DNA of 46,911 bases from Gammaproteobacteria bacterium (lineage in GTDB: Bacteria; Pseudomonadota; Gammaproteobacteria; Steroidobacterales; Steroidobacteraceae), in NCBI GenBank assembly GCA_028870355.1, contig JAGWPU010000120.1:1-46911 (forward strand). Reading direction: 5' to 3'. Shown here piece after piece: positions 12,931-30,500 of the stretch. The notes beneath the pieces were generated by a model. The model saw only the letters and a program-made list of their open reading frames with translations, made no database searches and was not told where the DNA came from. A program made the position numbers and the translations under genes. How positions within the stretch are numbered: the stretch's first letter is position 1; each line of letters begins with the position of its first letter.

Positions 12931-14112
12931 TCAGGTCATCTTGCGCTCGTCGAAACCGATGCCGCGCGCGATGATCTCCTTCATGATCTCGGACGTGCCC
13001 GCGTAGATCCGCGACACCCTCGCGTCGGCGTACATGCGGCAGATTCGATAGTCCTCCATGTATCCGGCACCGCCGTGCAGCTGCACGCACTCGTCGAGGA
13101 CCCGGGCCTCGAGTTCGCTCGCGACCCATTTCACGCCCGCCGCCGTCTCGGCATCGAGCTTGCGTTCGTTGTGCTGCATCACGCAGTGGTCCACATAGAC
13201 CTGCAGCGCATCGAGCTGGGCCCGCATTTCCGCCATCTTGAATCGCGTGTTCTGGAACGCCGCGAGACGCTTGCCGAAGACGCGCCGCTCCTTCACGAAC
13301 TCGTAGGTGAGTGCGAACGCGCTCTGCGCGTTCGCAATGTACTGACAGGCACCGATCAGGCGTTCCTCGACCAGGAACCTCGTCAGGTAGTGGAACCCCT
13401 TCGTCGGCTCACCGAGCACGTTCGCGGCCGGCACGCGCACCCGGTCGAAGAACAGCTCCGAGGTATCCTGGGCCTTCAGTCCGAGCTTCTTCAGTTTCCG
13501 GCCACGCTTGAACCCTGGCATGTCGCGCTCGACCAGGAACAACCCGAGCCCATGCGAGCGTTGCGGATCCGTCCGCGCGACCACGATCACGAGGTCGGCG
13601 AGCTGCCCATTGGAGATATAGAGCTTCGATCCGGAGAGAATCCAGTCGTCGCCATCCCGTTCCGCGCGCGTCCGGATCCCCGCGAGGTCGCTGCCCGCAT
13701 CGGGCTCGGTCATCGCGATCGCGAGGATCGTGTCGCCGCGGACGCAACCCGGCAGGAACCGCTCCTTCTGCGTCTCGCTGCCGAGTTCCCCGAGATACGG
13801 ACCGACGAGCCGCGAATGCAGGGTGAGGAACAGACCCGATTCGCCATGCTGGGAATTCTCCTCGATCATGATCTGTTCGTAGCGGAAGTCGTCGACGGCG
13901 GCTCCTCCGTAGCGCTCTTGCGCCCACATCAACAGGTATCCGCCTTCCCCGGCCTTGCGGTAGATCTCGCGGTCGACCTGGCCCGCTTCGCGCCACCGCT
14001 GGGCATGGGGCGCAACCTCCCGCGCGATGAATTTTCGAAACGATTCGCGAAACATCTCGTGTTCGGACTCGAAGATGTAACGTTTCACCGGGGGCATCGG
14101 GATTGTCGTCAT
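12931..14112 (-). CDS. Acyl-CoA dehydrogenase
   Basis: A 393-residue flavoenzyme oxidising acyl-CoA to trans-2-enoyl-CoA. The N-terminal helical domain covers about 1-130. The FAD-binding middle has AIAMTEPDAGSDLAGIRTRA and LSGSKLYISNG. The C-terminal domain has LHGGAGYMEDYRICRMYADARVSRIYAGTSEIMKEII, with Glu375 as the likely catalytic base. Electrons would pass to ETF, which is not in this window. It shares the minus strand with the enoyl-CoA hydratase and TetR genes just upstream (33-base gap), forming a likely three-gene operon. Chain-length preference cannot be judged. Confidence 0.93.
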   Translation of the reverse strand: MTTIPMPPVKRYIFESEHEMFRESFRKFIAREVAPHAQRWREAGQVDREIYRKAGEGGYLLMWAQERYGGAAVDDFRYEQIMIEENSQHGESGLFLTLHSRLVGPYLGELGSETQKERFLPGCVRGDTILAIAMTEPDAGSDLAGIRTRAERDGDDWILSGSKLYISNGQLADLVIVVARTDPQRSHGLGLFLVERDMPGFKRGRKLKKLGLKAQDTSELFFDRVRVPAANVLGEPTKGFHYLTRFLVEERLIGACQYIANAQSAFALTYEFVKERRVFGKRLAAFQNTRFKMAEMRAQLDALQVYVDHCVMQHNERKLDAETAAGVKWVASELEARVLDECVQLHGGAGYMEDYRICRMYADARVSRIYAGTSEIMKEIIARGIGFDERKMT

Positions 14113-14145: not shown

Positions 14146-14973
14146 TCAGAGCGCGTCGGGCAGCGGGTACAGCGGATCCGACGGAGCCGTCTTGCGTGTC
14201 CGCATCGCCTCGACGCCGCTTCGCAGGTCTTCGACGTCGAGCATCCCCGCCTGCCAGTTGATCGCCATTCTCGAGGCGACGTCGACGGGGTAATCGCGGG
14301 CGAAGTTGATCGCTTCCTTCGACCCCGCGACCGCAAGCGCGGATCGCGACGCGATCCTTCGCGCGCAGGCCCGGGTCCCCGCGAGCAGCGCATCGGTGGA
14401 GTCGAACGTTCGATTCACGAAGCCGAGGCGATGGGCATCCGCGGCGGACCACCGATCCCCGGTGTACGCGAGTTCGCGCACGATGCCCGCCGGGATCAGC
14501 TTCGGCATCCGCTGCAGGGTGCCGAGATCCGCCATCATTCCGATGTTGACTTCCTGAATGCAGAAGAACGCATCCGACGTCGCGTATCGAATGTCGCAGA
14601 CGCACGCAAGATCGAGCCCACCGCCGATGCACCCGCCCTGGATCGCGGCGATCACGGGAAACCGTGCGCGCTCGAGGCGGTTCAGCGCTTCCTGCAGGAG
14701 AGTGCCGACGTTTCGCATCCGCTCGCGGCCGCGGGCCGACGCGGTCGCGGCGCCCGCGTCGGCGAACACCGAGACGTCCATGCCCGCGCAGAAATGCGGC
14801 CCCGTCGACGCGATGATCATCGCCCTCGTCCGCCCCGTCGCGTCGAGTGCGTCGACGATTCGCGGCAACCGGTTCCAGAATGCCGGCGTCATCGCGTTGA
14901 GCGTCGCCGGGGAACTGAGCGTCAGCTCCGCGATCCCGTCGGCTTGGGTGAGGTGGAGGCCGTCGTCGGTCAT
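14146..14973 (-). CDS. Enoyl-CoA hydratase/isomerase (crotonase family)
   Basis: A 275-residue crotonase-fold protein. The oxyanion-hole stretches are STGPHFCAGMDVSVF and AAIQGGCIGGGLDLACVCDIRYAT, followed by FCIQEVNIGMMADLGTLQRMPKLI and the C-terminal GSKEAINFARDYPVD. An Asp sits in MMADLGTL where delta(3,5)-delta(2,4)-dienoyl-CoA isomerases have an acidic residue, so isomerisation is as possible as hydration. The start overlaps the TetR stop (ATGA), and it is followed by the acyl-CoA dehydrogenase. No trifunctional FadB is present in the window. Confidence 0.9.
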   Translation of the reverse strand: MTDDGLHLTQADGIAELTLSSPATLNAMTPAFWNRLPRIVDALDATGRTRAMIIASTGPHFCAGMDVSVFADAGAATASARGRERMRNVGTLLQEALNRLERARFPVIAAIQGGCIGGGLDLACVCDIRYATSDAFFCIQEVNIGMMADLGTLQRMPKLIPAGIVRELAYTGDRWSAADAHRLGFVNRTFDSTDALLAGTRACARRIASRSALAVAGSKEAINFARDYPVDVASRMAINWQAGMLDVEDLRSGVEAMRTRKTAPSDPLYPLPDAL

Positions 14974-15668
14974 GGGGTCGCTCCGTGGTCGCCGTCGGAC
15001 TTCGTCGCACGCCGTTCGGGGACCCGGATTCCTCGAACGAGCGTCAACGCCAGGCTCTTGACGAACCGGGTTCTCTCGGCCCGGGTGCCGCTCGGAAATT
15101 CGATCAGGCCCATCGAGATCAGCCGCGCGAGGCCGTACGAAAAAGCGAACAGGGTGTAACCGCTTTGACAGTGCGCGTGCGACCAGGCGATGTCGTCCGA
15201 CCGGTACCGGTGCTCGCCGTCGACCCGATTCACCAGGTCCTCGAACGCGAGCTCCGAGGCCGTCCGGAAGCGCTCGTGATCCCGGGCATCGACGATCTGC
15301 CCGAACATCAGCCGGAACAGATCCGGGTGATCGACGCCGAACTCGACGAAACCGGTCGCGATCGCGGTCAAACGCTCGTCGAACGCGTCGATCCGGGACA
15401 ACCGGCTCCGCAGGCGCTCCCGCAACTTGTCGAGCCCCTCCGCCGCGACGTCGAGCAGTAGGTGATCGAGGCTCGGATAATGGTTGTAGAAATTGGCCGC
15501 GGTGACCCCGACCTCGCGGCACAGTCGCCGCAGGGTCAATCGATCGAGCTCGCCCGATTCGATCAGCCGCGAGGCCGCGTCGAACAGATGCCGGTCCACG
15601 TTGCCCTTGTGGTATCGATCCTCGTCGCGGGCCGACCGGGATGGGCGCTTGCGCTTCGCAGCTGTCAT
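14970..15668 (-). CDS. TetR-family transcriptional regulator
   Basis: A 232-residue repressor-type protein. The N-terminal helix-turn-helix (about 20-70) reads LFDAASRLIESGELDRLTLRRLCREVGVTAANFYNHYPSLDHLLLDVA, the TetR pattern with a YNHYP recognition helix. The C-terminal ligand-binding part is helical and includes FVEFGVDHPDLFRLMFGQ. The ATG at 15668 was chosen over earlier in-frame starts because the extra 51 residues look like a shadow. It is cotranscribed with enoyl-CoA hydratase and acyl-CoA dehydrogenase, so an acyl-CoA ligand is likely. It is the best local candidate to bind the ATAAAC-type sites described at 17.2 and 25.0 kb. Confidence 0.9.
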   Translation of the reverse strand: MTAAKRKRPSRSARDEDRYHKGNVDRHLFDAASRLIESGELDRLTLRRLCREVGVTAANFYNHYPSLDHLLLDVAAEGLDKLRERLRSRLSRIDAFDERLTAIATGFVEFGVDHPDLFRLMFGQIVDARDHERFRTASELAFEDLVNRVDGEHRYRSDDIAWSHAHCQSGYTLFAFSYGLARLISMGLIEFPSGTRAERTRFVKSLALTLVRGIRVPERRATKSDGDHGATP

Positions 15669-15783: not shown

Positions 15784-17151
15784 TCAGGCCGGCAAGGACC
15801 GCAACGAGTCGGCCACGGCATCGACGATGCGGTCGATTTCCGCGGGCGTATTGGCAGTGGACAGCACCATGAAGCCCTGTGCGCCCATGAAGACGCCGCG
15901 ATTCAGCAGTCCTCGGAACAGCGCGCCGCCGCGCGTCATGATCTGCGGGTCGGCAGCGACCGTCGCGACCAGATCACGATAGGTGCGGATCCTTGCATCC
16001 GTCATGAACAGACCGGTCAGCGAGGCCGCGCCGGTCACCGTGCCGGGTCGACCGGTGACCCGCAATGCGTCTCGCAGCCCGGCGCGCAATCGATCACCGA
16101 GCGCCGACAGTCGATCGAACGCCGCTTCGTCGAAGTGCGCCATCGCGGCGAGCCCCGCCGCCATGGTCAGCGGATTGGCGTTGAACGTGCCCGCATGGGC
16201 GAGCTTCGCGCCGCGCCGGGGATCGAACAGTTCGTCCATCAGATCGGCCCGTCCTCCGACCGCGCCGATCGGCAGACCGCCGCCGATGATCTTGCCGAGC
16301 GCGACCACGTCGGGTTCGATCCTGAGCACGGAGTGGGCCCCGTGGAAGCCGAGCCGCAGACTGTAGACCTCGTCGAAGACCAACAGCGCCCCGCAGCGAG
16401 CGGTTTCCTCGCGCAGCATCGAGACGAATTCCGGTGTGACCGCCATGAACGCGAGATTCTTCACCATCGGATCGACCAGCACGCCGGCGAGCCGAGCGGC
16501 GTGGCGACGGATCAGCCGACGCCCGAGTTCGACGTCGTTCATCGGCAATACCAGCACGTCCTGTGCGACGCCGGGAGCCGAGCCGCTGTCCTGGACCGCG
16601 GAAGGAGCATCGGCCTCGCCCCAGCGGGCCGGATCCGGCGAGGTGCTCACCGAAGCCGTTTCGGCCGATCCGTGGTAGGCCCCCTCGATCTTCGCGATCA
16701 GCGGCCGCCCGGTGAGCGCACGCGCGGCCTTGAGCGCGAACATCACCGCCTCGGTGCCGGAATTGCAGAAACGCACCCGCTCCACCGCATCGAGTCGCTC
16801 GACGAGCAACTCCGCCAGCTTCACCTCGCTTTCCGTGGGCAATGCCACGGAGATCAACTCCGAGGCCTGCCGCGCGATCGCATCGACCACCGCGGGATGG
16901 CAATGACCGTGGATCAGCGAAGAGTAGTTGTTCACGCAGTCGAGCCGCTCGACGCCGTCGACGTCCCAGATCCGGCTCCCTCGTCCCCGCGCCGCGTACA
17001 CCGGGTACGGCGGAAAGAAAACCGAGTGGCGGCTGTTACCGCCGGGCAACACCCGGCGCGCGCGCTCGTGCAGCACCGCGGAACGCGATAGCGGATCGGG
17101 GAACGGCGCGGCGCCGCCGGCCTGCCCTGGCATGGAATTCGGAGTCGTCAT
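15784..17151 (-). CDS. HemL-like class III aminotransferase/aminomutase
   Basis: A 455-residue PLP enzyme similar to glutamate-1-semialdehyde 2,1-aminomutase. Visible blocks are VLPGGNSRHSVFF, NNYSSLIHGHCHP, NSGTEAVMFALKAAR, EGAYHGSAE, LVFDEVYSLRLG and Lys287 in ALGKIIGGGLPIGAVGG, then GTFNANPL. It lies in an acyl-CoA catabolic region, divergent from a MaoC-acyl-CoA ligase operon, and the NNYSSLIHGH and VKNLAFM segments differ from those I expect of true HemL. I infer a catabolic or biosynthetic aminotransferase rather than tetrapyrrole synthesis. It shares the regulatory region at 17.2 kb. Confidence 0.82.
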   Translation of the reverse strand: MTTPNSMPGQAGGAAPFPDPLSRSAVLHERARRVLPGGNSRHSVFFPPYPVYAARGRGSRIWDVDGVERLDCVNNYSSLIHGHCHPAVVDAIARQASELISVALPTESEVKLAELLVERLDAVERVRFCNSGTEAVMFALKAARALTGRPLIAKIEGAYHGSAETASVSTSPDPARWGEADAPSAVQDSGSAPGVAQDVLVLPMNDVELGRRLIRRHAARLAGVLVDPMVKNLAFMAVTPEFVSMLREETARCGALLVFDEVYSLRLGFHGAHSVLRIEPDVVALGKIIGGGLPIGAVGGRADLMDELFDPRRGAKLAHAGTFNANPLTMAAGLAAMAHFDEAAFDRLSALGDRLRAGLRDALRVTGRPGTVTGAASLTGLFMTDARIRTYRDLVATVAADPQIMTRGGALFRGLLNRGVFMGAQGFMVLSTANTPAEIDRIVDAVADSLRSLPA

Positions 17152-17240
17152 ACGCGATCACCGTGGTTCGAGGCTGATGGGCGGGACGGACCGGCGGTGC
17201 GCTCGAGGCATCCGGACGCACCGCCGCCAGCCATCTCAAT

Positions 17241-17257
17241 ATAAACAGTGTAAATTT
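17241..17257. promoter_or_regulatory. Operator-like site A (ATAAACAGTGTAAATTT)
   Basis: The site lies in the divergent region between the aminotransferase and MaoC genes. It shares ATAAAC-N3-GT with two sites at 25.0 kb and resembles TetR-family half-sites. A minus-strand TTGACA (17274 to 17269) lies just beside it. Confidence 0.5.
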
Positions 17258-17275
17258 CCAGGTAATATTGTCAAG

Positions 17276-17296
17276 CTTCGGGCGCGGCGCCCGAAG
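17276..17296. promoter_or_regulatory. Perfect 21-bp palindrome in the MaoC gene leader
   Basis: CTTCGGGCGC (17276-17285) and GCGCCCGAAG (17287-17296) are exact complements around a single central base, 23 bases before the MaoC GTG start and just upstream of its Shine-Dalgarno sequence. It may be a protein-binding site, or an RNA hairpin that affects translation. Confidence 0.45.
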
Positions 17297-17318
17297 CGAT
17301 GAACGAGGAGACCAGGCC

Positions 17319-18185
17319 GTGCAATTCGCACTCGACACGATCGGACGGGATCTCGGATCGGCGCAGACCACCGCGACGACGCGGCGCGTGCTCGCATTCG
17401 CCGCGGCGGTCGGCCCCGACGATCCGGACACGCTCGACGATCTCGCCGCGGGCGGCCTGGCCGCGATCCCGTCGTTCTGTGCGGCGATCGAATGGGGCTT
17501 GCTGTCGAGCCCCGACCGATCCGGCGCGCTCGCAGTGCTCGGAGGCGAACTCTCGCGGTACCTGCACGTCGGCCAGGACTCGCTGTTCCACACGCCGATC
17601 CGCGCGGGCGCGGAACTGCGGATCGCAGGACGCCTCGTCGGACTGACCAGCACCCGCGCGGGTGCGTTGATCACGCTGCGCATCGAGACCCGCGACGCGA
17701 CACTCGGTTCCGCGGTCGTGACGTCCTGGTGCACCGTCCTGTGCCGTGGCGCGACGATCGAGGGCCCGGATCGGCTCGTCGAGCCACCGCCGTCGCTCGT
17801 CGCACCGGAGCCGGTGTCGAGGCATCGCGTCGAGATTCGCGTGCCCCACGGCCTCCCTCACGTCTATGCCGAGTGCTCCGGCATCATCAATCCGATTCAC
17901 ACCGAACGGCGCGCCGCCACGGAGGCGGGCCTGCCGGACATCGTGTTGCAAGGCACCGCCACCTGGGCGATGGCCGGGCGCGAACTCGTCCACCGGCTGG
18001 GACGACCGGCCGGCCGCCGTCTCCACCGTCTCGCGGGCGAGTTCCGTGCACCCGTGATCCCCGGGTCGTTCATCACGCTGCATCACGACGTCCCGGCCGA
18101 TCCCGCCGGGGTCGTCGGATTCGAGGTACGCAATGCGAGCGGTGCGATCGCGATCGCAAACGGACGCGCCGTCTTTGCCGGATGA
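17319..18185 (+). CDS. MaoC-like double hot-dog dehydratase/hydratase
   Basis: A 288-residue protein. The N-terminal half (about 1-150) is an FAS1-like dehydratase domain (TTRRVLAFAAAVGPDDP, with SRYLHVGQDSLFHTPIRAGAEL). The C-terminal half is a MaoC hot-dog with YAECSGIINPIHTERRAATEAGLPDIVLQGTATWAM; the Asn-Pro-Ile-His stretch resembles the hydratase-2 catalytic motif (D-x4-H, here N-x-I-H). Likely (R)-specific enoyl-CoA hydration or 3-hydroxyacyl-thioester dehydration. The GTG start has GAGGAG eight bases upstream. It overlaps or directly precedes the acyl-CoA ligase gene. Confidence 0.85.
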   Translation: MQFALDTIGRDLGSAQTTATTRRVLAFAAAVGPDDPDTLDDLAAGGLAAIPSFCAAIEWGLLSSPDRSGALAVLGGELSRYLHVGQDSLFHTPIRAGAELRIAGRLVGLTSTRAGALITLRIETRDATLGSAVVTSWCTVLCRGATIEGPDRLVEPPPSLVAPEPVSRHRVEIRVPHGLPHVYAECSGIINPIHTERRAATEAGLPDIVLQGTATWAMAGRELVHRLGRPAGRRLHRLAGEFRAPVIPGSFITLHHDVPADPAGVVGFEVRNASGAIAIANGRAVFAG

Positions 18186-18214
18186 ACCGCAACCGCCCTC
18201 CCGGAGAACGTCCC

Positions 18215-19801
18215 ATGCCGCCGAAAACCGCCCTCACCCCGACCGCAACGCACCCGTTCACCGGTCGTGACCTGCCCTGGCTGCTCGCGACCCAAGCGCA
18301 CGCACGAGCGGATCACCCGTTCCTCGTCTGGGATCCGTTCGACGGTGCGGAAGCCCGCTGGACCTATGGGGAATTCGCCCGAGACGTGGCACGACTGGCC
18401 GCCGGACTCGTCGCGCGGGGCGTCGCGGCGGGAGATCGGATCCTGATTCACCTCGGCAACTGTCCCGAGTTCCTGATCGCGTATTTTGCCTGCGCTCGGG
18501 TCGGTGCGATCTCGGTCACGACGAATACGCGGTCCACGGTCGACGAACTCGCGTACTACGCGGCGAACGCGAACGTCACTGCCGCGATCACACAACCGCA
18601 GCTGCTCGAGACGGTACGCGCGGCGGCGCCGGCGCTGCGCTGGATCGCCTGCACCGCGACCGACCTCGGCGCGGCACCGGCGGCACCGCCACCGATCGGC
18701 GTGCTCGGGTTCGCCGACCTGTTCGGCGACGAATCGAGCGCTCCCTCCCGCGCCGCCGAGCCGCTCGCGCCGAACAGCGTGCAATACACCTCGGGCACGA
18801 CCTCCCGGCCGAAAGGCGTCGTGTGGACGCACGCGAACGCGCTCTGGGGCGCGCGGATCGGATCCGAACTGCTGCACCTCCGGGGGAGCGACGTCACCCT
18901 CGTGTACCTGCCGCTCTATCACACCAACGCGATCTCGTATTCGACGCTGAGCACGCTGTGGTCCGGGGGCACGATCGTGCTGCACCCCAAGTTCTCGGCG
19001 AGCCGATTCTGGGATGCGATCATCCGGCACGGGTGCACCTGGTTCATCGGCATTCCGTTCAGCCTGCTGGCCCTCGTGAAGCAACCCAAGCCGGGACCGC
19101 ACCGGGTGAGGTTCATCGGACTCGGTGCATCCGACGTCTCGATCCTGCGCGAGGTCTGGGGATTGCGCAGCCTGGGGTGGTTCGGGATGACCGAGACCGT
19201 GACCTTGACGATCATGAGCGAACACGGCTGGCCCGGGCGCGAGATGGCGATGGGCGTGCCGGTGCCCGGCTACGAGATCAAGGTGGTCCGGGACGACGGA
19301 ACGGAGGTGGCCTTCGGCGAGAGCGGACACCTGAAGATCCGGGGAATTCCCGGCATTTCGCTGTTCCTCGAATATCTCGGCAATCAGCAGGCGACCGACG
19401 CGTGCTTCGATGCGGACGGCTGGTTCTCGACCGGGGATCGCGTGACGCCGTTCGCGGACGGTCAGATCCGTTTCGACATGCGGGACAAGGACATGCTGCG
19501 GGTCGGCGCCGAGAACGTCGCGGCGGCGGAGATCGAGCGAGTGATCTTCGCGAGCGGCGCAGTCGCGGAAGTCGCCGTCGTCGGCGCACCGGACGAGATG
19601 CTCGAGGAGGTGCCGGTCGCCTACGTGATCCCGCTCGCGAACACCCCGGACCTCGCCGACCGTTTGCTCGCGCGGTGCCGCGCCGAGCTCGCGGACTTCA
19701 AGATACCTCGACGCATCATCGTGGTCGCGGATCTGCCGCGAGTGACCCTCGAGAAGATCGACAAGAAGGCATTGCGGCTGCGCTTGCGCGAAGCGCGATA
19801 G
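18215..19801 (+). CDS. Acyl-CoA synthetase (AMP-forming ligase)
   Basis: A 528-residue member of the adenylate-forming family that activates a carboxylic acid to its CoA thioester. Motifs in order: VQYTSGTTSRPKGVVWTH (P-loop), LPLYHTNAISYS, GWFGMTET, DGWFSTGDR, RFDMRDKDMLRVGAENVAAAEIE and the C-terminal VTLEKIDKKALR, which supplies the catalytic lysine. The ATG at 18215 has GGAG eight bases before it. An in-frame ATG at 18182 overlaps the MaoC stop (ATGA) and would add 11 residues. It is probably the entry point for the acid imported by the nearby TonB receptor system. Substrate unknown. Confidence 0.92.
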   Translation: MPPKTALTPTATHPFTGRDLPWLLATQAHARADHPFLVWDPFDGAEARWTYGEFARDVARLAAGLVARGVAAGDRILIHLGNCPEFLIAYFACARVGAISVTTNTRSTVDELAYYAANANVTAAITQPQLLETVRAAAPALRWIACTATDLGAAPAAPPPIGVLGFADLFGDESSAPSRAAEPLAPNSVQYTSGTTSRPKGVVWTHANALWGARIGSELLHLRGSDVTLVYLPLYHTNAISYSTLSTLWSGGTIVLHPKFSASRFWDAIIRHGCTWFIGIPFSLLALVKQPKPGPHRVRFIGLGASDVSILREVWGLRSLGWFGMTETVTLTIMSEHGWPGREMAMGVPVPGYEIKVVRDDGTEVAFGESGHLKIRGIPGISLFLEYLGNQQATDACFDADGWFSTGDRVTPFADGQIRFDMRDKDMLRVGAENVAAAEIERVIFASGAVAEVAVVGAPDEMLEEVPVAYVIPLANTPDLADRLLARCRAELADFKIPRRIIVVADLPRVTLEKIDKKALRLRLREAR

Positions 19802-20429
19802 CGCGCGCCCACACGAGGCAACCGTCGGGGCCCGCGTGGAAGCCGTCACGCGCAAAGTGGCGATCCTCGACGTCCGGGGGGAACGGCGCATAGAGCGCCC
19901 CGGCATCGGCGGCCGCCCGCTTCGCCGCGGCGACGTAGACGAGCGCTCGTCGATCGAGAAAGCGGCCCAGACGACCGCGCAACGCCGGGAACGCCGCAAA
20001 CGACGGCAAGCCGGCGTGCACGACGCGGGCGTGCGGCCAACGGCGCCGAATCCGGGCGTGGAACTGCGCGATCGCGGCATGGTAGCGCCCGGGGTCGCGC
20101 CCGCGCAGCACGTCGTTGACGCCGCAGGAGAGCAGCACGTGGTCCGCCGGCACGCCGCGCGCCCGCTCGGTCAATTCCTCGAGCCGGTCCGCGGTCGCAC
20201 CGGAGACGGCGAAGCTCTCCCAGCGGGCCGAGCGTCCCGCGGCAATCTCGCCGGCGAACCGGGCGACCAGACCCTCGGACTGCGACTCGACGCCGACACC
20301 CGCGGCGATCGAATCGCCGAAGCCGACGACGGAGACGGCGGGCGGCACCCCGGGGACGCCGCCGCCGGGCTGCGGCGGCGTCGGCAGACGAATCGCCGTC
20401 GCCCACAGCCAGGCGAGGCGAGCGTTCAT
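19716..20429 (-). CDS. SGNH/GDSL-type esterase
   Basis: A 237-residue SGNH hydrolase. Block I is VSVVGFGDSIAAGVGVES with the nucleophile Ser in GDSIAAG. The oxyanion-hole Gly lies in ESFAVSGATADRLEEL, the Asn in LLSCGVNDVLRGRDP, and the catalytic Asp-His in FARDGFHAGPDG. An N-terminal hydrophobic segment (LAWLWATAIRL) could anchor or export it. The start is uncertain: the chosen ATG leaves a 28-base gap to fadH, while an earlier in-frame start would overlap fadH. The last 86 bases overlap the acyl-CoA ligase tail to tail. It may release an acid from an ester for the neighbouring ligase. Confidence 0.8.
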   Translation of the reverse strand: MNARLAWLWATAIRLPTPPQPGGGVPGVPPAVSVVGFGDSIAAGVGVESQSEGLVARFAGEIAAGRSARWESFAVSGATADRLEELTERARGVPADHVLLSCGVNDVLRGRDPGRYHAAIAQFHARIRRRWPHARVVHAGLPSFAAFPALRGRLGRFLDRRALVYVAAAKRAAADAGALYAPFPPDVEDRHFARDGFHAGPDGCLVWARAIALRASAAAMPSCRSSRGSLAADPRPR

Positions 20430-20457
20430 CTCCCAGCGCAGCAGAACCGCGTCGCGC

Positions 20458-22452
20458 TCAGAGGGACGCGGCGAGCTCGACGCCTTGGCGGATCGCTCTC
20501 TTCGCATCGAGTTCCACGGCGACGTCGGCGCCGCCGATCCGATGAACCCGGCATCCCGCGGCCCGCAACGCCGGCTCGAGGTCTCGCAATGGCTCCTGGC
20601 CCGCGCAGACGATCACGTGGTCCGCCTCGATCAGGCGCGCGTGTCCGTCGATCTCGACGTGCAGTCCGGCATCGTCGATGCGTCGATAGGCAACCCCGGC
20701 GATCATCTCGACGCCGTGGCTCTTGAGCGACGCGCGGTGGATCCAGCCGGTGGTCTTGCCGAGTCCGTCGCCGACCTTGGTACTCTTCCGCTGCAGCAGC
20801 GTGATCCGGCGCTGCGGGCGCGATCGCTGCGGCGCGCATACCCCGCCCCGGTGCCGATAGGCCGTGTCGATTCCCCACTCGGCATAGAAATCCGCGGGCG
20901 CGCCGAGCAGAAACGCGGCGACGTCGAACGCGATGCCACCGGCCCCGATCGTCGCCACTCGCCGCCCGACCTCCGTCGATCCGGCGAGCACCTCGACGTA
21001 GCTCAGGACCTTCGGGTGCGAGACTCCGTCGATCTGCGGAACGCGCGGCGAGATCCCGGTCGCGAGCACGATCTCGTCGAACCCCGCTCCCGCAAGCGTC
21101 GGCGCGTCGACCCGGCACCCGAGCCGCACCTCGGCACGATGCAGTTGCAGTTGGCGCAGGTAATAGCGCAGCGTCTCGCGGAACTCCTCCTTGCCGGGAA
21201 TCCGCTTCGCCAGATTGAACTGTCCACCGATCTCGGGCCCGGCCTCGAACACCGTGACCCGATGCCCGCGCCGGGCCGCGGTCGTCGCGAAGCTGAGGCC
21301 CGCCGGCCCGGCACCGACCACGGCGATGCGCTTGGGATGCTCGACGGGCACCTCGTTCAGCTCGCGCTCGCGGCATGCACGCGGATTCACGAGGCACGAG
21401 GTGATCTTGCCGGCGAAGGTGTGATCGAGACAAGCTTGATTGCAGGCGATGCAGGTGTTGATCTCGTCGGGGCGACCTTCCGACGCCTTGCGCACGAATT
21501 CCGGATCGGCCAAGAACGGTCGCGCCATCGACACCAGATCGCAGACACCGTCCGCGAGGAGCCGTTCGGCCGTCTCCGGCGTGTTGATCCGATTCGACGC
21601 GACCAGGGGAATGCTCACCGACCCGCGCAGGCGTTGCGTGACCCAGGCGAAGGCCGCCCGGGGCACCATCGTCGCGATCGTCGGAATTCGGGCCTCGTGC
21701 CAGCCGATTCCGGTGTTGAGGATGTTCGCCCCGGCCGCTTCGATCGCCTTCGCGAGCGTGACGACCTCCTCGAGGGTCGACCCGCCTTCGACGAGATCGA
21801 GCATCGACAGGCGGTAGATCACGATGAAGCGCGGACCCACCCGGTCGCGCACTCGACGGACGATCTCGACCGCAAAGCGGATGCGCGAGGAATAGTCGCC
21901 GCCCCACCGGTCGGATCGGCGATTGGTGCGCGCCGAGATGAACTCGTTGATCAGGTAGCCTTCCGAGCCCATGATCTCGACGCCGTCGTAACCGGCGAAC
22001 TGTGCGAGGCTCGCGCAATTCGCGAAGTCGTCGATCGTCTGCTCGACCTCGGCGTCGGTCAGTTCTCGCGGCACGAACGGGCTGATCGGCGCCTGCAGCG
22101 CGCTCGGCGCGACCAACTCCGGATGGTAGGCGTAGCGGCCGAAGTGCAGGATCTGCATCGCGATCTTGCCGCCGGCGCGGTGAACGGCGTCGGTGACGAC
22201 CCGATGACTGGTGGCCGCGGCCCGATCGTCGAGGCAGGCGCCGCCCGGCATCGGCCGGCCCGCCGCGTTCGGCGCGATGCCGCCGCTCACGATGAGACCG
22301 GCACCGCCGCGGGCGCGCTCCGCGTAGAACGCCGCCATCCGCTCGAAGCCGCCCTTGGCCTCCTCGAGGCCGAGGTGCATCGAGCCCATGATGACCCGGT
22401 TCGCGAGTCGCGTGGCACCGACGTCGAGCGGCTCGAGGAGCTTGCTGAACAT
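20458..22452 (-). CDS. fadH: 2,4-dienoyl-CoA reductase (NADPH), FadH type
   Basis: A 664-residue iron-sulfur flavoprotein. Residues 1 to about 340 are an OYE-like TIM barrel with FMN (LHFGRYAYHP, GSEGYLINEFISARTNRRSD, TGIGWHEAR). Four cysteines follow as CIACNQACLDHTF and then TSCLVNPRAC, the 4Fe-4S site. Then come the FAD motif AVVGAGPAGLSFATTAARRG and an NADPH-binding part (VATIGAGGIAFDVAAFLLG). The length equals E. coli FadH (672). It reduces 2,4-dienoyl-CoA formed from polyunsaturated chains. The start overlaps the thiolase stop by one base, in the order hydroxyacyl-CoA dehydrogenase, thiolase, fadH. Confidence 0.95.
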   Translation of the reverse strand: MFSKLLEPLDVGATRLANRVIMGSMHLGLEEAKGGFERMAAFYAERARGGAGLIVSGGIAPNAAGRPMPGGACLDDRAAATSHRVVTDAVHRAGGKIAMQILHFGRYAYHPELVAPSALQAPISPFVPRELTDAEVEQTIDDFANCASLAQFAGYDGVEIMGSEGYLINEFISARTNRRSDRWGGDYSSRIRFAVEIVRRVRDRVGPRFIVIYRLSMLDLVEGGSTLEEVVTLAKAIEAAGANILNTGIGWHEARIPTIATMVPRAAFAWVTQRLRGSVSIPLVASNRINTPETAERLLADGVCDLVSMARPFLADPEFVRKASEGRPDEINTCIACNQACLDHTFAGKITSCLVNPRACRERELNEVPVEHPKRIAVVGAGPAGLSFATTAARRGHRVTVFEAGPEIGGQFNLAKRIPGKEEFRETLRYYLRQLQLHRAEVRLGCRVDAPTLAGAGFDEIVLATGISPRVPQIDGVSHPKVLSYVEVLAGSTEVGRRVATIGAGGIAFDVAAFLLGAPADFYAEWGIDTAYRHRGGVCAPQRSRPQRRITLLQRKSTKVGDGLGKTTGWIHRASLKSHGVEMIAGVAYRRIDDAGLHVEIDGHARLIEADHVIVCAGQEPLRDLEPALRAAGCRVHRIGGADVAVELDAKRAIRQGVELAASL

Positions 22453-23636
22453 CAAAGGACCTCGAACAACCCGGCCGCGCCCATTCCGCCTCCGACGCAC
22501 ATCGTGACCACGACGTATCTCACGCCGCGCCGCTTGCCGGCGAGCAGCGCGTGCCCGACCATCCGCGCACCGGACATCCCGTACGGATGGCCGATCGAGA
22601 TCGCACCGCCGTCGACGTTCAGCCGTTCGTCCGGAATGCCGAGCCGGTCGCGACAATAGAGTACCTGAACCGCGAATGCCTCGTTGAGTTCCCACAGACC
22701 GACGTCCTCGATCTTGAGGCCGTGCCGCTGCAGCAACCTCGGCACCGCGAATACCGGCCCGATCCCCATTTCGTCGGCAGCGCAACCGACGATGGCCATC
22801 CCTCGATACGCGCCGAGCGGCTGCAGTCCACGACGCGCGGCCGCGCCCGCCTCCATCATCACGCACGCGCTCGCGCCGTCGGAGAGCTGACTTGCGTTGC
22901 CGGCGGTAACCACGCCGTGCGGGCCCATCACCGGCGCGAGTGCCTGCAACGCCTCCAGGCTCGTGTCCGGCCGCATGCCCTCATCGCTCGCGAGCCGAAC
23001 CTCCTGCAGCGAGACCTTGCCGGTCTGCTTGTCGGTCACCGCCTTCTCCGTGCTCACGGGAACGATCTCGGCGTCGAATGCGCCCGCGGCCTGCGCCGCC
23101 GCGGTGCGCTGCTGGCTTTGCAGCGCATGGCGATCGCAGACCTCCCGGGTGACGCCATACCGATACGCGACGACTTCGGCAGTCTGGAGCATCGGCATGT
23201 GGGCATCCGGGTGCCGCTTCAGCAGGCGCGGGTCGGGGGCTCGCGACGCGTTGAACTGCTTGTTCTGCACCAGGCTGATGCTCTCGACCCCGCCCGCGAC
23301 GCAGACGTCCATCCCGTCGACGACGATCTGCTTCGCCGCGGTCGCGATCGCCATCAGTCCGGACGCGCATTGACGGTCGATGCTCATCCCACCGACGGAC
23401 TCGGGCAGTCCCGCCGCCATCGCGGCCAATCGCCCGATGTTGAAGGTCTGGGTCCCTTGCTGCATCGCGCAGCCCATCACGCAGTCCTCGATCTGCGCCG
23501 GGTCGATGCCCGCGCGGCCGACCGCATGCGCGATCGGAATGCTCGCGAGCGTCGGCGCCTCGAGATTGTTGAAAGCACCCGTGTAGGCCTTGCCGATCGG
23601 CGTACGGGACGTGGAGACGATCACGGCTTCTCTCAT
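22452..23636 (-). CDS. Acetyl-CoA acyltransferase (thiolase)
   Basis: A 394-residue thiolase that cleaves 3-ketoacyl-CoA. The acylated cysteine is Cys90 ([14 protein letters not shown]), the base His350 ([15 protein letters not shown]) and the second Cys380 ([17 protein letters not shown]). N-terminal [14 protein letters not shown] is intact. The DRQCASGL and GHPYGMSG forms are common in fatty-acid and sterol-type degradative thiolases. It sits between the 3-hydroxyacyl-CoA dehydrogenase and fadH genes on the same strand, 24 bases from the former. Confidence 0.95.
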
Positions 23637-23660
23637 GAGGATCCTCGCGCGTTGCGGTGG

Positions 23661-24959
23661 TCAGGCGAACAGCAGATCGAGCGACGGGTTCGGCGCCCAG
23701 TAGCGGTCGGCGAACGCCGGATCCGCGCGGCGGCGCGCCGCGATCCCGTCTCGTACGGCCGGCAGTCCCAGTTGCCGGGCGAGGTAGACCGGCCCGCCCT
23801 TCGCGGCGGGGAAGCCGTAGCCATACACCCAGATCACGTCGACGTCGCTCGCCCGCGGCACGACACCCTCGGCAAGCACGCGGGCCGCCTCGTCGATCAC
23901 CGGCAGCAGACAGCGCATCACGATCTCCTCGTCGGTGAACGAGCGTTGCGCAACCCCGAGCTGCGACGCGATCCGATCGCGTATCTCGAGCGCACGCGCC
24001 GACGGGAGCGGCGTCCGCCCGTCCGGCCCGTAGTCGTAGTTGCCGGCGGCGGCCTTCTGGCCGAGCCGTCCCGCGTCGACCAGCGCCTTCGTGAGCGCCC
24101 CGTAGCGTGGATCGTCGGGGATCAGCCGAGCCTCGCGCAGCGCATGGATGTAGTGATTGCGGATGTCGAGGCCCGCCATGTCGGCCATCGCACACGGTCC
24201 CATCGGAAAGCCGAACTGCGTGAGCGCCCGGTCCACGTCCTCCGGCCGCGCGCCCTCGAGCACGAGGAACTCGCTTTCCCGGCCATAGCCCTCGAGGGTG
24301 CGGTTCGCCGCGAAGCCCGGGGAATTCCCGACGACGACGCCGATCTTGCGCAGGATCGTCGAGAGGTACAGCGCGCTGCGAAGCACCTCGAGCGCGGTCT
24401 CCTTCCCGCGGACGATCTCGAGCAACGGCATCACGAACGCCGGCGAGAAGAAATGCAGACCGACCACGTCCGCAGGACGACCGCTCGCGCGCGCGATCCG
24501 GTCGACGTCGAGACCGGAGGTGTTGGTCGCGAGGATCGCCCCGGGCTTCGCGATCGCGCCGAGCCGGCGGAACACGTCCTCCTTGACCGTCACTTGTTCG
24601 AATACCGCCTCGACGATCACGTCGCAGTCGGCCAGCGCCTCGAACTCGAGGCTCTCGGACAGGAGCACCGGCAAGCCCTTGGCCTGGCTCTCGAACATCT
24701 GCCCGCGTTTGACGAGCGAGGCGAACGCCTTGTCGACGCTCCCCCGACCCTGGTCGAGCGCCGACTGCTTGAGGTCGACGAGCGTGGTCGGCACCCCGGC
24801 GGCGAGCAGGCAGACCGCGATGCCCGAGCCCATCAGGCCGGCGCCGACGACGCCCGCGGTGCGGATCTCGCGTCCGCGCAGGCCCGCAGGCAATCCCGGT
24901 ACGCGGCCCAGCTGGTTCAACGCGTGGGCGAGATGGTGTTTCGGCGCGATGGTGTTCAT
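23661..24959 (-). CDS. 3-hydroxyacyl-CoA dehydrogenase (stand-alone)
   Basis: A 432-residue NAD-dependent dehydrogenase. The Rossmann motif is VVGAGLMGSGIAVCLL (Gly39-Gly46). TNTSGLDVDRIA, His169 in VGLHFFSPAFVMPLLEIV and VGNSPGFAANRTL complete the active site. Two C-terminal 3HCDH_C-like parts follow (FGFPMGPCAMADMAGLD and DVIWVYGYGFPAAKGGPVYLA), as in the second half of FadB/FadJ, but the N-terminal enoyl-CoA hydratase domain is absent. Hydration must come from the separate crotonase or MaoC genes. It heads the operon with thiolase and fadH and is divergent from the TonB receptor, with operator-like site B at its promoter. Confidence 0.94.
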   Translation of the reverse strand: MNTIAPKHHLAHALNQLGRVPGLPAGLRGREIRTAGVVGAGLMGSGIAVCLLAAGVPTTLVDLKQSALDQGRGSVDKAFASLVKRGQMFESQAKGLPVLLSESLEFEALADCDVIVEAVFEQVTVKEDVFRRLGAIAKPGAILATNTSGLDVDRIARASGRPADVVGLHFFSPAFVMPLLEIVRGKETALEVLRSALYLSTILRKIGVVVGNSPGFAANRTLEGYGRESEFLVLEGARPEDVDRALTQFGFPMGPCAMADMAGLDIRNHYIHALREARLIPDDPRYGALTKALVDAGRLGQKAAAGNYDYGPDGRTPLPSARALEIRDRIASQLGVAQRSFTDEEIVMRCLLPVIDEAARVLAEGVVPRASDVDVIWVYGYGFPAAKGGPVYLARQLGLPAVRDGIAARRRADPAFADRYWAPNPSLDLLFA

Positions 24960-25001
24960 GGGTTCGGCATCTCGATGGTCACTCCCGGGACTGACGGATA
25001 A

Positions 25002-25016
25002 ATAAACATCGTTTAT
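25002..25016. promoter_or_regulatory. Operator-like site B (ATAAACATCGTTTAT)
   Basis: ATAAAC and GTTTAT are perfect 6-bp inverted arms around three bases. The site overlaps the edge of a likely -10 (TATATA, minus strand 25021 to 25016) for the 3-hydroxyacyl-CoA dehydrogenase operon, so binding would block RNA polymerase. Confidence 0.65.
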
Positions 25017-25045
25017 ATATAGGCCACGCACGCCGGCTGCGTCAA
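25016..25045 (-). promoter_or_regulatory. Predicted sigma-70 promoter for the hydroxyacyl-CoA dehydrogenase operon
   Basis: On the minus strand, TTGACG (25045 to 25040), then 18 bases, then TATATA (25021 to 25016). The leader to the ATG at 24959 is about 50 bases. Operator-like site B overlaps its downstream edge. Confidence 0.55.
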
Positions 25046-25085
25046 GCCGCCCGGGCACCGCCCGATCCGGCACCACCGGTCGCAT

Positions 25086-25100
25086 ATAAACACCGTTGAC
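25086..25100. promoter_or_regulatory. Operator-like site C (ATAAACACCGTTGAC)
   Basis: The left arm ATAAAC is identical to that of site B, and the right arm GTTGAC is a diverged GTTTAT. The right arm contains the first five bases of the -35 of the TonB receptor promoter. Confidence 0.55.
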
Positions 25101-25124
25101 ATTTAACCGGACGAGGAATAATTT
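25096..25124 (+). promoter_or_regulatory. Predicted sigma-70 promoter for the TonB receptor gene
   Basis: A consensus TTGACA at 25096-25101, then TAATTT after 17 bases; AATAAT at 15 bases is an alternative -10. The leader is about 105 bases. The -35 overlaps operator-like site C. Confidence 0.5.
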
Positions 25125-25234: not shown

Positions 25235-27529
25235 ATGCGAGTCAAATCCCGCGCCAGCGCGGTACTCGGTTCACCGGTCGTCACGTTCGGCTCGACTCTG
25301 TTGATCTGCGCGACGGCGGTCATCGCACCACCGCCGGCGCAAGCGCGCAGCAGCGATCCCGCCGCCACCCGCTCCTCCGACACGCTCGACGAGATCGTCG
25401 TGACCGCGCAACGGCGGCACCAGTCGGAATTCGACGTCCCTCTATCGGTCAGCGCGATCAGCGGCCGATCCTTGCAGACCGCCGCGATCACCTCGATCAA
25501 GGGCATCGTGCAAATGGTCCCGAACGCGAACGTGACCGAGAACCCGCAGGGCTACGAGACCTACGTCAGCATTCGCGGCATCACCCAGGGCGACGTGAAC
25601 GCCGAGGCGAATTTCGGCGCCTATCGCAACGGCGTGTTCACCGGCGGTCACCTCGTGAACCTGGGACCGCAGATCGACGTCGAGCGGGTCGAGGTCCTGC
25701 GCGGTCCGCAGGGCGGACTCTACGGGCGCGACGCGGTGGGCGGCACGATCAACGTGATCTACGCGATGCCGAAGCCCGGGGACCAAACGAACGGCTATGT
25801 CAGCGCAAGCTACGGCAACGAGCAGCGGACCCAGGTCGACGGCGCGGTCACCCTGCCGATCAACGACCGGATCGCGACGCGCACGACGGCCTGGTACATC
25901 GATCAGGGCCAAGGCGACTACTACAACATCACGCTGCACAATTACGTGGATCGCAGCAAGGATGAAGGCCTTCGATTCAGCACGGCGGCCCAGATCACCG
26001 ACCCCTTGAGCTTCCTGGGCACGGTCGAATACCAGAAGAACAACGACCCCGGCTTGCGCACCTATGCGCCGAACGGCGTGAAGAACGGACCGTTCGTGAC
26101 CTCCCCGTCGGAAACTCCGACCACGGTCCAGCGCGACACGGACTCCCGCCTCGCGTCCACGCAACTGTTCGCCTCGGCGCGCCTGCGGTACGCGCTGCCG
26201 GGAGGAAGCCTGTCGTTGCAGTCGGCGTACCGGGACTACCGCATCGGCCTCACGCTCGATCAGGACCACACGGCCTTGCCGCCGACCGCCGGTCCGCTGG
26301 TGCTGAAGCAGGTCGGCGCGTGGTCCGATTCGATCAAGCAGTATCTGGTCGACGCGTACTGGCAGTCCGACGCGACCGGCCCGCTCACGAGCCAGGCCGG
26401 CATCTCCTATCTCCACGAGGACTACGCGGTCGGCCAGATCTACACGACCTCGCTCGACACCGCGTTCCTCGGGGGCTTCGGCGTCCCGAACATCGGGGTG
26501 ATCACGGGTGCCGCCGGCATCCCGAACCTGGGGTCGGCGATTACGACGCATTCGTTCGCCGGCTTCGTCGATCTCGGCTACGCGCTGACCCGGTCCCTGA
26601 CGATCACCGGCGTCGTTCGCTACACGCAGGACGACGAGTCGCTGGCGTGGAGCCAGGGCATCATCCAGGGGGCGACCTCGCCCCCGTACGCGCTGCCGAT
26701 CGTTCTCGGCCTGTTCAGTTCGCAGGTCCCGACCTTCGCGCTCGCCGCGCACGACACCTACCGGTACACCTCGCCGTCGGTGAATCTGCAGTACAAGCTC
26801 GACCCCCACGTGAACCTGTACGCGCTCTACAGCACCGGCTTCCGCCCGGGCGGCTACAACACCACGGTGACCTCGCCGACCGAGATTCCCTACGGACAGG
26901 AAACCGCGAAGAACTACGAGGCCGGATTCAAGAGCCGCTGGCTCGGCGGCCGGGCGGCGCTGAACTTCTCGCTGTTCCGGATGGATCAATATAACCTCGC
27001 GATCCAGCAGACGGACCTGTTGAGCACCTTGAACTTCACCTACCTCGCGAACGCGGGTCGCGCCCGGACCGATGGCTATGAGCTCGAGGCGATGATCCGG
27101 CCAATCCGCTCGCTGACGGCGTCGCTGAGCCTCGGCCATCTGAACTCGAAATACACGCGCGGGATGGTGAATGCCGACACGCCGCAGCAGATCGACCTCA
27201 CGGGCCGCCCCCTCTCGGGCGTGCGACCCTGGACGATCAACGCGCAACTGCAATCCGAAGCGCCGATATCGAGCTCGATCCGGTTCACCGGGTTGGTCAG
27301 CGCCCGCCACGAGAGCGGCGGCGCGATCGGCAACAACTCCGATTATCCGCTGCAGTCGCTGACGTTGCTCGATCTCGGCGCGACTTTCACGCTCGCCGGG
27401 CATACCGAGGTGACGCTCTTCGACCACAATGCGACGGACAAGGTGATCCCGCTGTTCGTCTACGCGACCGGCGACGTCGGAACGAACATCGGCCGTCGCT
27501 TTGGCTTGCAGGTGACGGAGAAGTTCTAG
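25235..27529 (+). CDS. TonB-dependent outer membrane receptor
   Basis: A 764-residue receptor. Residues 1-37 form a signal peptide ending PPPAQA. The TonB box is TLDEIVVTAQRRHQ (about 50-63). The plug domain follows (VPLSVSAISGRSLQ, YVSIRGIT, VERVEVLRGPQGGLYGRDAVGGTINVI), then a barrel with the late FRPGGYNTTV and GYELEAMIRP segments and a terminal Phe. ATG chosen for GGGGGAA upstream; an earlier in-frame start adds 35 residues before the signal. This EIVVTAQRR class in sphingomonads and related gammaproteobacteria often imports hydrophobic or plant- and steroid-derived compounds. Being divergent from beta-oxidation genes with shared operators, its ligand is probably a lipid-like acid. No TonB or ExbB genes are nearby. 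Confidence 0.92.
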   Translation: MRVKSRASAVLGSPVVTFGSTLLICATAVIAPPPAQARSSDPAATRSSDTLDEIVVTAQRRHQSEFDVPLSVSAISGRSLQTAAITSIKGIVQMVPNANVTENPQGYETYVSIRGITQGDVNAEANFGAYRNGVFTGGHLVNLGPQIDVERVEVLRGPQGGLYGRDAVGGTINVIYAMPKPGDQTNGYVSASYGNEQRTQVDGAVTLPINDRIATRTTAWYIDQGQGDYYNITLHNYVDRSKDEGLRFSTAAQITDPLSFLGTVEYQKNNDPGLRTYAPNGVKNGPFVTSPSETPTTVQRDTDSRLASTQLFASARLRYALPGGSLSLQSAYRDYRIGLTLDQDHTALPPTAGPLVLKQVGAWSDSIKQYLVDAYWQSDATGPLTSQAGISYLHEDYAVGQIYTTSLDTAFLGGFGVPNIGVITGAAGIPNLGSAITTHSFAGFVDLGYALTRSLTITGVVRYTQDDESLAWSQGIIQGATSPPYALPIVLGLFSSQVPTFALAAHDTYRYTSPSVNLQYKLDPHVNLYALYSTGFRPGGYNTTVTSPTEIPYGQETAKNYEAGFKSRWLGGRAALNFSLFRMDQYNLAIQQTDLLSTLNFTYLANAGRARTDGYELEAMIRPIRSLTASLSLGHLNSKYTRGMVNADTPQQIDLTGRPLSGVRPWTINAQLQSEAPISSSIRFTGLVSARHESGGAIGNNSDYPLQSLTLLDLGATFTLAGHTEVTLFDHNATDKVIPLFVYATGDVGTNIGRRFGLQVTEKF

Positions 27530-29090: not shown

Positions 29091-29263
29091 CGCTTGAAGG
29101 ATAATGAGCACGCCCGATCGGAATATGCAGATACCGCATCGTGCGATCCCCTCTGCGCATCGGCTCGCCGCATCGTCTGGCTATCCTTCGGTGCATCGAC
29201 ATCACGTGGCACGCCTCGGCGGCGGGCGGTGCCCACCGGCCGGCGCGCGCCGAGGAGCAGCCC

Positions 29264-30461: not shown

Positions 30462-30500
30462 GAGCAACCAATACGCATTGCTCATGGATCGATCGAGCAA
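30462..30500. promoter_or_regulatory. Alternating GAGCAA repeats before the epimerase gene
   Basis: GAGCAA at 30462-30467, TTGCTC at 30478-30483 and GAGCAA at 30495-30500: three copies in alternating orientation, with centres 16 and 17 bases apart. They lie between the aminotransferase stop and the epimerase start, where a regulator could bind. Confidence 0.3.

What the first reader, a model, noticed from the sequence alone, without database searches (positions are those of the whole stretch)
17241..25124. Three copies of an ATAAAC-N3-GT(T/A) operator tie a TonB receptor to acyl-CoA catabolism
Seen in sequence: ATAAACAGTGTAAA (17241), ATAAACATCGTTTAT (25002) and ATAAACACCGTTGAC (25086), all in divergent promoter regions and none elsewhere that I noticed. 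Site B has perfect 6-bp arms and overlaps a -10; site C overlaps a consensus TTGACA. Together they would control the ligase/MaoC operon, the HemL-like aminotransferase, the hydroxyacyl-CoA dehydrogenase-thiolase-fadH operon and the outer membrane receptor. Inference: one regulon for uptake, activation and beta-oxidation of an acid, with the TetR protein at 14970-15668 as the repressor and an acyl-CoA as inducer.
Basis: partly seen in the sequence, partly recalled or inferred. Interest (0 to 1): 0.78.

Follow-up and report, generated by a model that had tools for sequence, protein, structure and literature searches.

The report
TetR operator regulon for beta-amino peptides
Three copies of a DNA switch site in this bacterium, which recur at the same genes in other bacteria, most likely let one repressor protein control a gene set for taking up and breaking down an unusual peptide or fatty acid that carries a beta-amino group.

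Summary
ATAAAC-N3-GT(T/A) occurs at three places in the window, the only exact matches in the 2.93 Mb (92% complete) genome. A matrix from these three sites alone finds the same 21-bp palindrome at orthologous promoters in Rubrivivax albus (6 sites), a beta-proteobacterial MAG (12) and a same-genus genome (1). Rubrivivax and the MAG carry a 53-54% identical TetR with an invariant recognition helix (9 of 9). The window's LysR is an unlikely binder: no homologue was found in two clusters that keep the motif.

The substrate reading needs changing. The conserved genes join a beta-transaminase/GSAM-like aminotransferase, a DmpA/BapA-type peptidase, PepN, an amidase, a D-Glu-type racemase and a TonB receptor to acyl-CoA enzymes; the MAG regulon adds an MlrC-like peptidase. 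This points to a beta-amino-acid peptide. A microcystin/nodularin-type substrate is possible but unproven. Binding and inducer are untested.

The parts
17238..17258 (.). Operator A, 21 bp, centre 17248; covers the second hexamer of the minus-strand promoter-like match TTGACA-N16-TACACT (17274-17247)
   Evidence: same position and similar sequence in G013 (L117 centre 1483)
24999..25019 (.). Operator B, centre 25009, perfect 6-bp arms ATAAAC/GTTTAT; before HCDH-thiolase-FadH
   Evidence: no strict promoter match
25083..25103 (.). Operator C, centre 25093; overlaps TTGACA (25096-25101) before the TonB receptor
   Evidence: no strict promoter match
14970..15668 (-). TetR-family regulator (TetR_N above cutoff, TetR_C_33 below), candidate repressor, in the site-A unit
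15784..17151 (-). Class III aminotransferase, GSAM/beta-transaminase branch; first gene of the site-A minus-strand unit
14146..14973 (-). Enoyl-CoA hydratase/isomerase, overlaps tetR by 4 bp; not in the related cluster stretches
12931..14112 (-). Acyl-CoA dehydrogenase; not in the related cluster stretches
17319..18185 (+). MaoC-type hydratase (FAS1_DH + MaoC), first gene after site A on the plus strand
18215..19801 (+). AMP-forming acyl-CoA ligase
20458..22452 (-). FadH/OYE-family flavoprotein (2,4-dienoyl-CoA-reductase type by family; no NCBIfam cutoff reached)
22452..23636 (-). Thiolase
23661..24959 (-). 3-hydroxyacyl-CoA dehydrogenase, first gene after site B (start ATG 24959)
25235..27529 (+). 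TonB-dependent receptor, first gene after site C (start ATG 25235 judged likelier than GTG 25130)
27603..29111 (-). Methylmalonate-semialdehyde-type aldehyde dehydrogenase (TIGR01722 above cutoff); no operator nearby in this window
30478..31575 (+). DgcA-type N-acetyl-D-Glu racemase / dipeptide epimerase family (above cutoff)
31625..33031 (+). Serine hydrolase of the beta-lactamase family
33058..34197 (-). S58 peptidase, DmpA/BapA (beta-peptidyl aminopeptidase) kin
35221..36732 (+). MFS transporter
36729..39437 (+). M1 aminopeptidase N (TIGR02414 above cutoff)
39519..40937 (+). Amidase-signature enzyme
42472..43572 (+). FAA-hydrolase-family enzyme

Best explanation
A local TetR-family repressor (14970-15668) binds a 21-bp palindrome, ATATnnACRnYGTnnATAT, laid over the promoter regions of its own unit (site A) and of the HCDH-thiolase-FadH and TonB-receptor units (sites B and C). 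In the inducer-free state it shuts off uptake, activation and beta-oxidation together, and represses its own gene. An intermediate of the pathway, probably an acyl-CoA, releases it. The controlled pathway takes up a beta-amino-acid-containing peptide or lipopeptide through the TonB receptor and MFS carrier and trims it with S58, PepN, beta-lactamase-type and amidase hydrolases. It then removes the beta-amino group with the transaminase, activates the acid with the ligase, and passes it through MaoC, FadH, HCDH and thiolase. Shown here: the sites, the lack of other exact matches in the genome, their recurrence at orthologous promoters, gene conservation, and conservation of the TetR recognition helix. 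Inferred: binding, repression, inducer, and substrate class.
For: Three sites, the only exact matches in 2.93 Mb. A matrix from these three alone ranks cluster promoters at the top elsewhere: R. albus 70 kb, best six hits before cluster genes (26.7 to 16.1; next 12.0; random maximum mean 12.0, 95% 16.5, highest 20.3); beta MAG, 12 hits of 16.7 or more (next 11.2; random 95% 15.5, highest 17.3); G013, one hit at the site-A position (23.8; next 9.7; random highest 16.9). Sites lie before HCDH, ligase, TonB receptor, the racemase-MFS-AT3 unit (which in R. albus also holds tetR), FadH (in the MAG tetR lies downstream of FadH on the same strand), MaoC and MFS. TetR identity 53-54% in R. albus and the MAG; recognition helix 9 of 9 invariant against 59 of 152 in residues 64-215. 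Site A sits on a promoter-like match before the tetR unit. AT3 matches beta-transaminase and GSAM structures and keeps PGGN(S/T)R in the window protein and its 3 orthologues. S58 matches DmpA at 4e-99 and beta-peptidyl aminopeptidase at 2e-83.
Against: No binding or expression data. TetR was not found in G013, which keeps the site (the tool warns that an empty answer alone shows nothing); close ECH and ACAD copies are also missing there (best 35%) and the contig ends beside AT3, so an assembly gap and a true loss cannot be told apart. In this window the genes from 27603 to 43572 have no high-scoring operator (best 11.3 at 42271), so half the proposed pathway is not under the sites here. No strict promoter match at B or C. 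The best NCBIfam match of AT3 is GSAM, below cutoff (316 of 398), and GSAM structures score close to the beta-transaminases; AT3 also has Gln-Gly where beta-phenylalanine aminotransferase has Arg-Gly, so its substrate may differ. FabR is only a sub-cutoff hit (38 of 151 bits), so an acyl-CoA ligand is weakly based.
Confidence: 0.72

Rival explanations
1. The LysR-type regulator at 34262-35197 is the binder; the invariant T(-6) and A(+6) would be a T-N11-A LysR box (box recalled).
For: The 22-site set has T at -6 and A at +6 in every site, and LysR is conserved in G013 at 83%.
Against: No homologue of this LysR at E 1e-10 in the R. albus or beta MAG stretches examined, although the motif is abundant there; no site near lysR in the window; site A sits on a promoter -10 as expected of a repressor.
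Confidence: 0.04
2. Ordinary fatty-acid regulon of the PsrA/FadR/DesT kind: TetR senses long-chain acyl-CoA and the cluster is a general lipid or unsaturated-fatty-acid degradation set.
For: Ligase, MaoC, FadH-type, HCDH and thiolase are present. The PsrA box is given as (G/C)AAAC(N2-4)GTTT(G/C) in PMC10304680 (passages), close to the AAAC-N3-GTTT core of site B. The TetR profile weakly matches DesT (2.6e-6) and FabR.
Against: The conserved set also holds a beta-transaminase/GSAM-like enzyme, S58, PepN, amidase, racemase and beta-lactamase-type hydrolase in 4 of 4 clusters, the window's included, which plain fatty acids do not need; fabA/fabB and ACAD/ECH beside tetR are not in the related stretches; the flanks of the core are T/A, not G/C.
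Confidence: 0.2
3. The sites are AT-rich promoter elements that look alike by chance in a 68% GC window.
For: Sites overlap promoter-like hexamers; with one mismatch the pattern is no commoner than its reversed control.
Against: No exact match elsewhere in the genome; recurrence as a 21-bp palindrome at orthologous promoters in three other genomes, found with a matrix trained only on the window.
Confidence: 0.02

Closest known systems
PsrA-type TetR regulators of beta-oxidation (P. aeruginosa PsrA, S. maltophilia Smlt2053)
   Same: Autoregulated TetR in its own beta-oxidation operon, AAAC..GTTT palindrome in the operator region, fatty-acid inducer (PMC10304680, passages read)
   Different: Longer A/T-flanked 21-bp palindrome with fixed N3 centre; controls a peptide/beta-amino-acid cluster and a TonB receptor; no orthology shown
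FabR / DesT-type TetR regulators
   Same: Best NCBIfam hit of this TetR is FabR (38 bits) and DesT is among PDB matches; these sense acyl-CoA (recalled)
   Different: Well under the FabR cutoff of 151 bits; targets are catabolic, and no operator lies before fabA/fabB in the window
PA3973 of P. aeruginosa (TetR, acyl-CoA dehydrogenase operon)
   Same: TetR controlling adjacent acyl-CoA genes with palindromes over its own predicted -10 (PMC9736018, passages read)
   Different: More than 300 sites genome-wide and a different 13-bp motif; here three sites only
mlr microcystin-degradation pathway (MlrA-D)
   Same: MlrC-like M81 peptidase in the beta MAG regulon (7ylq, 1.3e-117); beta-lactamase-family hydrolase (that MlrB is of that family is recalled)
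   Different: MlrC-like is below the NCBIfam cutoff (416.7 of 999) and no match was found in this genome or G013 (0 of 2); MlrA not looked for
Beta-transaminase and BapA/DmpA beta-peptide degradation enzymes
   Same: AT3 and S58 match these families by sequence
   Different: No described regulon joining them to a TonB receptor and acyl-CoA enzymes was seen in the listings (some capped)

Membership tests
TetR family | TetR_N helix-turn-helix domain above Pfam cutoff | tested here: met
   29.6 bits against 24; all-helical model, mean pLDDT 82.1, nearest folds mostly TetR-family proteins
TetR family | Repression by binding a palindromic operator | not testable with these tools
   Operator conservation only; needs EMSA
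FabR (NCBIfam NF008402) | Score above curated cutoff 151 | tested here: not met
   38.3 bits
PsrA box | (G/C)AAAC(N2-4)GTTT(G/C) | tested here: not met
   Core similar, but positions -6/+6 are T/A in 22 of 22 sites; definition from PMC10304680
Beta-transaminase (class III) | Class III aminotransferase with the N-terminal PGGN(S/T)R-type arginine seen in 2yku and 4ao9 | tested here: met
   Invariant in the window protein and 3 orthologues; its carboxylate-binding role is recalled
Beta-transaminase (class III) | C-terminal Arg (PRG in 4ao9 and 2yku) | tested here: not met
   AQG, SQG or SYG in the 4 cluster proteins; 6k8h also lacks it
GSAM (HemL, NCBIfam) | Score above curated cutoff | tested here: not met
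   316 of 398 and 312.7 of 527.3 bits
S58 (DmpA/BapA) | Peptidase_S58 domain and full-length match to DmpA/BapA structures | tested here: met
   347.9 bits; 4e-99 and 2e-83
S58 (DmpA/BapA) | Activity on beta-peptides | not testable with these tools
   assay needed
mlr microcystin pathway | MlrC present | tested here: not met
   0 of 2 for this genome and G013; related M81 in R. albus and beta MAG, below the MlrC cutoff for the MAG copy tested
mlr microcystin pathway | MlrA and MlrD present | not tested
   no search made

The most novel reading that the evidence does not exclude
The cluster is an mlr-independent pathway for Adda-type peptides (microcystin or nodularin), run by a dedicated TetR. 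On this reading, hydrolases free Adda and the D-Glu and iso-Asp residues, and the transaminase turns Adda into a 3-oxo-2-methyl acid. Ligase and thiolase would then remove propionyl-CoA and leave exactly a 2,4-dienoyl-CoA, the substrate type of FadH, after which beta-oxidation goes on. The MAG regulon's MlrC-like and beta-aspartyl-peptidase-like genes fit the peptide's unusual bonds.
Probability: 0.17. Interest if true: 0.9.

Novelty: new member of a known kind. Interest (0 to 1): 0.6.

Why it matters
It gives a mapped, testable regulon: one candidate repressor, a 22-site operator set across four genomes, and a conserved enzyme set that predicts catabolism of beta-amino-acid peptides. For microcystin, some degraders lack mlr genes (Paucibacter toxinivorans 2C20, PMC8068134, passages), and no other mechanism had been fully elucidated when PMC6914704 (2019, passages) was written. 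A named strain that carries the cluster, Rubrivivax albus ICH-3, makes a test feasible.

Tried and rejected
LysR as binder: judged unlikely, because the motif persists in R. albus and MAG clusters where no homologue of it was found. Genome-wide regulon: no further exact site in this genome; in 296 relatives 102 have a TATAAACNNNGTNNA match, with no excess over the reversed control to the eye (not summed). TetR orthologues: 2 loci in the genome-contig scan, which finds close relatives only; 1 of 399 in the order of R. albus, itself, at E 1e-35; 39 of 148 relatives have a match at E 0.001, all but the window's own at 21-35% identity; 62 plasmid records, all under 60%, the 15 shown at most 32%. 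fabA/fabB as targets: no site upstream and not in the related stretches. Steroid reading: nothing seen for it. MlrC in this genome: no match.

Rows dropped before the 22-site logo: L115 centre 15555 (16.7, one of the 12 MAG hits) and L121 centre 821 (15.9); L122 centre 3513 was added from the pattern search. Contig C247 of the MAG entered the scan because one search had shown sites there; C139 and C278 entered through TetR and the TonB receptor. The nulls are first-order Markov sequences, 100 runs. L115 and L120 overlap by 2 kb. Pattern TATNNACNNNGTNNA, which I loosened after seeing the relatives, matches genome-wide 6 times here (control 4), 10 in R. albus (control 4), 35 in the MAG (control 18) and 8 in G013 (control 6); so outside the clusters most matches look like background, and the MAG's wider regulon is not settled.

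Errors of mine: the HCDH query began in a wrong frame; one search uses the right one. One search asked beyond the end of a locus and one search was a script slip. One search failed on a bad frame; one search scanned the PepN gene in frame, with a changed list in which the SGNH frame no longer appeared.
Full report
OBSERVATION. The pattern gives 4 matches at 3 places in the window against 0.01 expected, and those are the only exact matches in the 2.93 Mb genome, which is 91.85% complete. With one mismatch allowed there is no enrichment (23+32 against 30+31 in the reversed control), so the information sits in the exact core. Sites A, B and C lie in two divergent intergenic regions.

GENES. Minus-strand unit from site A: class III aminotransferase (15784-17151), TetR (14970-15668), enoyl-CoA hydratase, acyl-CoA dehydrogenase. 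TetR is thus in the site-A unit, if the 115-bp gap after the aminotransferase holds no promoter of its own. A promoter-like match TTGACA-N16-TACACT on the minus strand has its second hexamer inside operator A; for B and C the same scan finds none. Plus strand from A: MaoC and AMP-forming ligase. From B: HCDH, thiolase, FadH/OYE. From C: TonB receptor. Further right: aldehyde dehydrogenase above the MMSDH cutoff, class I/II aminotransferase, DgcA-type racemase above cutoff, beta-lactamase-family hydrolase, S58 peptidase, LysR, MFS, PepN above cutoff, amidase, asparaginase, FAA hydrolase.

RELATED CLUSTERS. A scan of genome contigs (described as 84,980 species) with the TetR protein, which reaches close relatives only, found two loci, in Rubrivivax albus ICH-3 and in a MAG titled uncultured beta proteobacterium, at 53-54% identity. 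The aminotransferase found a same-genus genome, G013, at 80%. Of 24 window genes compared at E 1e-10 with the stretches fetched, 16 are in both R. albus and the MAG: TetR, AT3, MaoC, ligase, FadH, thiolase, HCDH, TonB receptor, class I/II aminotransferase, racemase, beta-lactamase-type, S58, MFS, PepN, amidase and FAA hydrolase. MMSDH is in R. albus and G013 but not in the MAG stretches. FabA, FabB, ACAD, ECH, LysR, asparaginase and the SGNH-like frame are not in the R. albus or MAG stretches. TetR is not found in G013 and ECH and ACAD have no close copy there (best 35%); its contig ends beside AT3, so this is either an assembly gap or a loss.

OPERATOR IN THE RELATIVES. A symmetrised 21-bp matrix from the three window sites only was run over these stretches. 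R. albus, 70 kb: the six best hits (26.7, 26.2, 21.3, 21.0, 18.8, 16.1) are before HCDH, ligase, TonB receptor (two) and the racemase-MFS-AT3-TetR-S58 unit (two); the seventh is 12.0. Random sequences reach a mean maximum of 12.0, 95th percentile 16.5 and highest 20.3, so four hits exceed every random run, five exceed the 95th percentile and the sixth falls just short. Beta MAG: twelve hits of 16.7 or more before TonB receptor (three), racemase (two), ligase (two), MFS (two), MaoC/SDR, HCDH and FadH; next 11.2; random 95th percentile 15.5, highest 17.3, so eleven exceed every random run. One of the three MAG contigs had been chosen because it held pattern matches. G013: one hit, 23.8, in the AT3-MaoC gap as in the window; the stretch that would hold B and C falls between two contigs. 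A further site (23.8) lies before an amidohydrolase-hydrolase-asparaginase_2-creatininase run next to dnaA in the MAG. The 22-site set gives wATRTnnACRnYGTnnAYATw with T(-6) and A(+6) invariant. Pairs of sites are common: MAG 34, 63, 63 and 64 bp apart; R. albus 34, 113 and 166; window 84.

WHO BINDS. TetR is the only regulator I found in the window, R. albus and MAG clusters alike; not every frame of the relatives was scanned. Its recognition helix (residues 55-63) is invariant 9 of 9 and residues 40-63 are 20 of 24, against 59 of 152 for residues 64-215. No homologue of the window's LysR was found in the R. albus or MAG stretches. A GntR gene sits near the MAG cluster. Kinship of this TetR is remote: FabR 38 bits (cutoff 151), DesT 2.6e-6 and 3ang 3.1e-4 (that 3ang is a FadR is recalled), best fold match 3on2 of unknown function. 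An acyl-CoA ligand is therefore a guess.

WHAT IT DEGRADES. AT3 matches structures named aminotransferase class-III (6k8h, 2.6e-120), ForI, beta-transaminase (1.2e-74) and beta-phenylalanine aminotransferase (3.1e-73), with GSAM close behind (6e-73); in NCBIfam GSAM is best but below cutoff. It keeps the PGGN(S/T)R arginine in 4 of 4 proteins aligned but lacks the C-terminal arginine. S58 matches DmpA and beta-peptidyl aminopeptidase. In the MAG, the motif-bearing contig L119 holds an M81 peptidase matching Microcystinase C (1.3e-117) though below NCBIfam's MlrC cutoff; no match was found here or in G013, and R. albus has a 62% relative on another contig. Together these favour a beta-amino-acid peptide or lipopeptide. 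The Adda reading is attractive because removal of C1-C2 from deaminated Adda would leave a 2,4-dienoyl-CoA for FadH (chemistry reasoned here from the Adda structure given in PMC9144602, passages), but iturin-like or other beta-amino lipids are not excluded.

LITERATURE. The listings showed, by title and start of abstract, no paper describing this cluster or operator; some searches were capped (20 of 27, 15 of 220, 15 of 32 shown). Passages were read in PMC8068134, PMC9144602, PMC6914704, PMC9736018 and PMC10304680; no paper was read whole.

VERDICT. Observation confirmed; local TetR regulon strongly supported by comparative genomics; substrate and inducer open. As a regulatory device it is a new member of a known kind.

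Noticed in passing
window 29141-30790: The class I/II aminotransferase matches its family only to about 361 of 396 profile positions, then runs on into a long overlap with the racemase gene; the G013 copy is a 401-aa frame. It may be frameshifted near its 3' end in this genome or its assembly.
   Followed up: partly
window 19716-20507: An SGNH-hydrolase-like frame on the minus strand overlaps the ligase 3' end by about 86 bp and the FadH end by about 50 bp; conserved in G013 at 59%, not in the R. albus or MAG stretches. The SGNH label comes from reading the sequence, not from a call.
   Followed up: partly
window 10863-12661: A fabA-fabB-like pair lies just beyond the acyl-CoA dehydrogenase; no operator upstream and not in the related stretches.
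   Followed up: yes
L122 (beta MAG C370) 1948-7728: A high-scoring operator and an amidohydrolase run with a beta-aspartyl-peptidase-like gene sit directly beside dnaA-dnaN, so part of the regulon may have landed near the replication origin.
   Followed up: partly
L126 34-1035 (R. albus about 60 kb): An rve-type integrase/transposase gene lies beyond the R. albus cluster; it could bear on transfer of the cluster between lineages.
   Followed up: no
L112 9192-10409 (R. albus): A cytochrome P450 sits between the PepN and amidase genes of R. albus; none of the window proteins I scanned is a P450.
   Followed up: no
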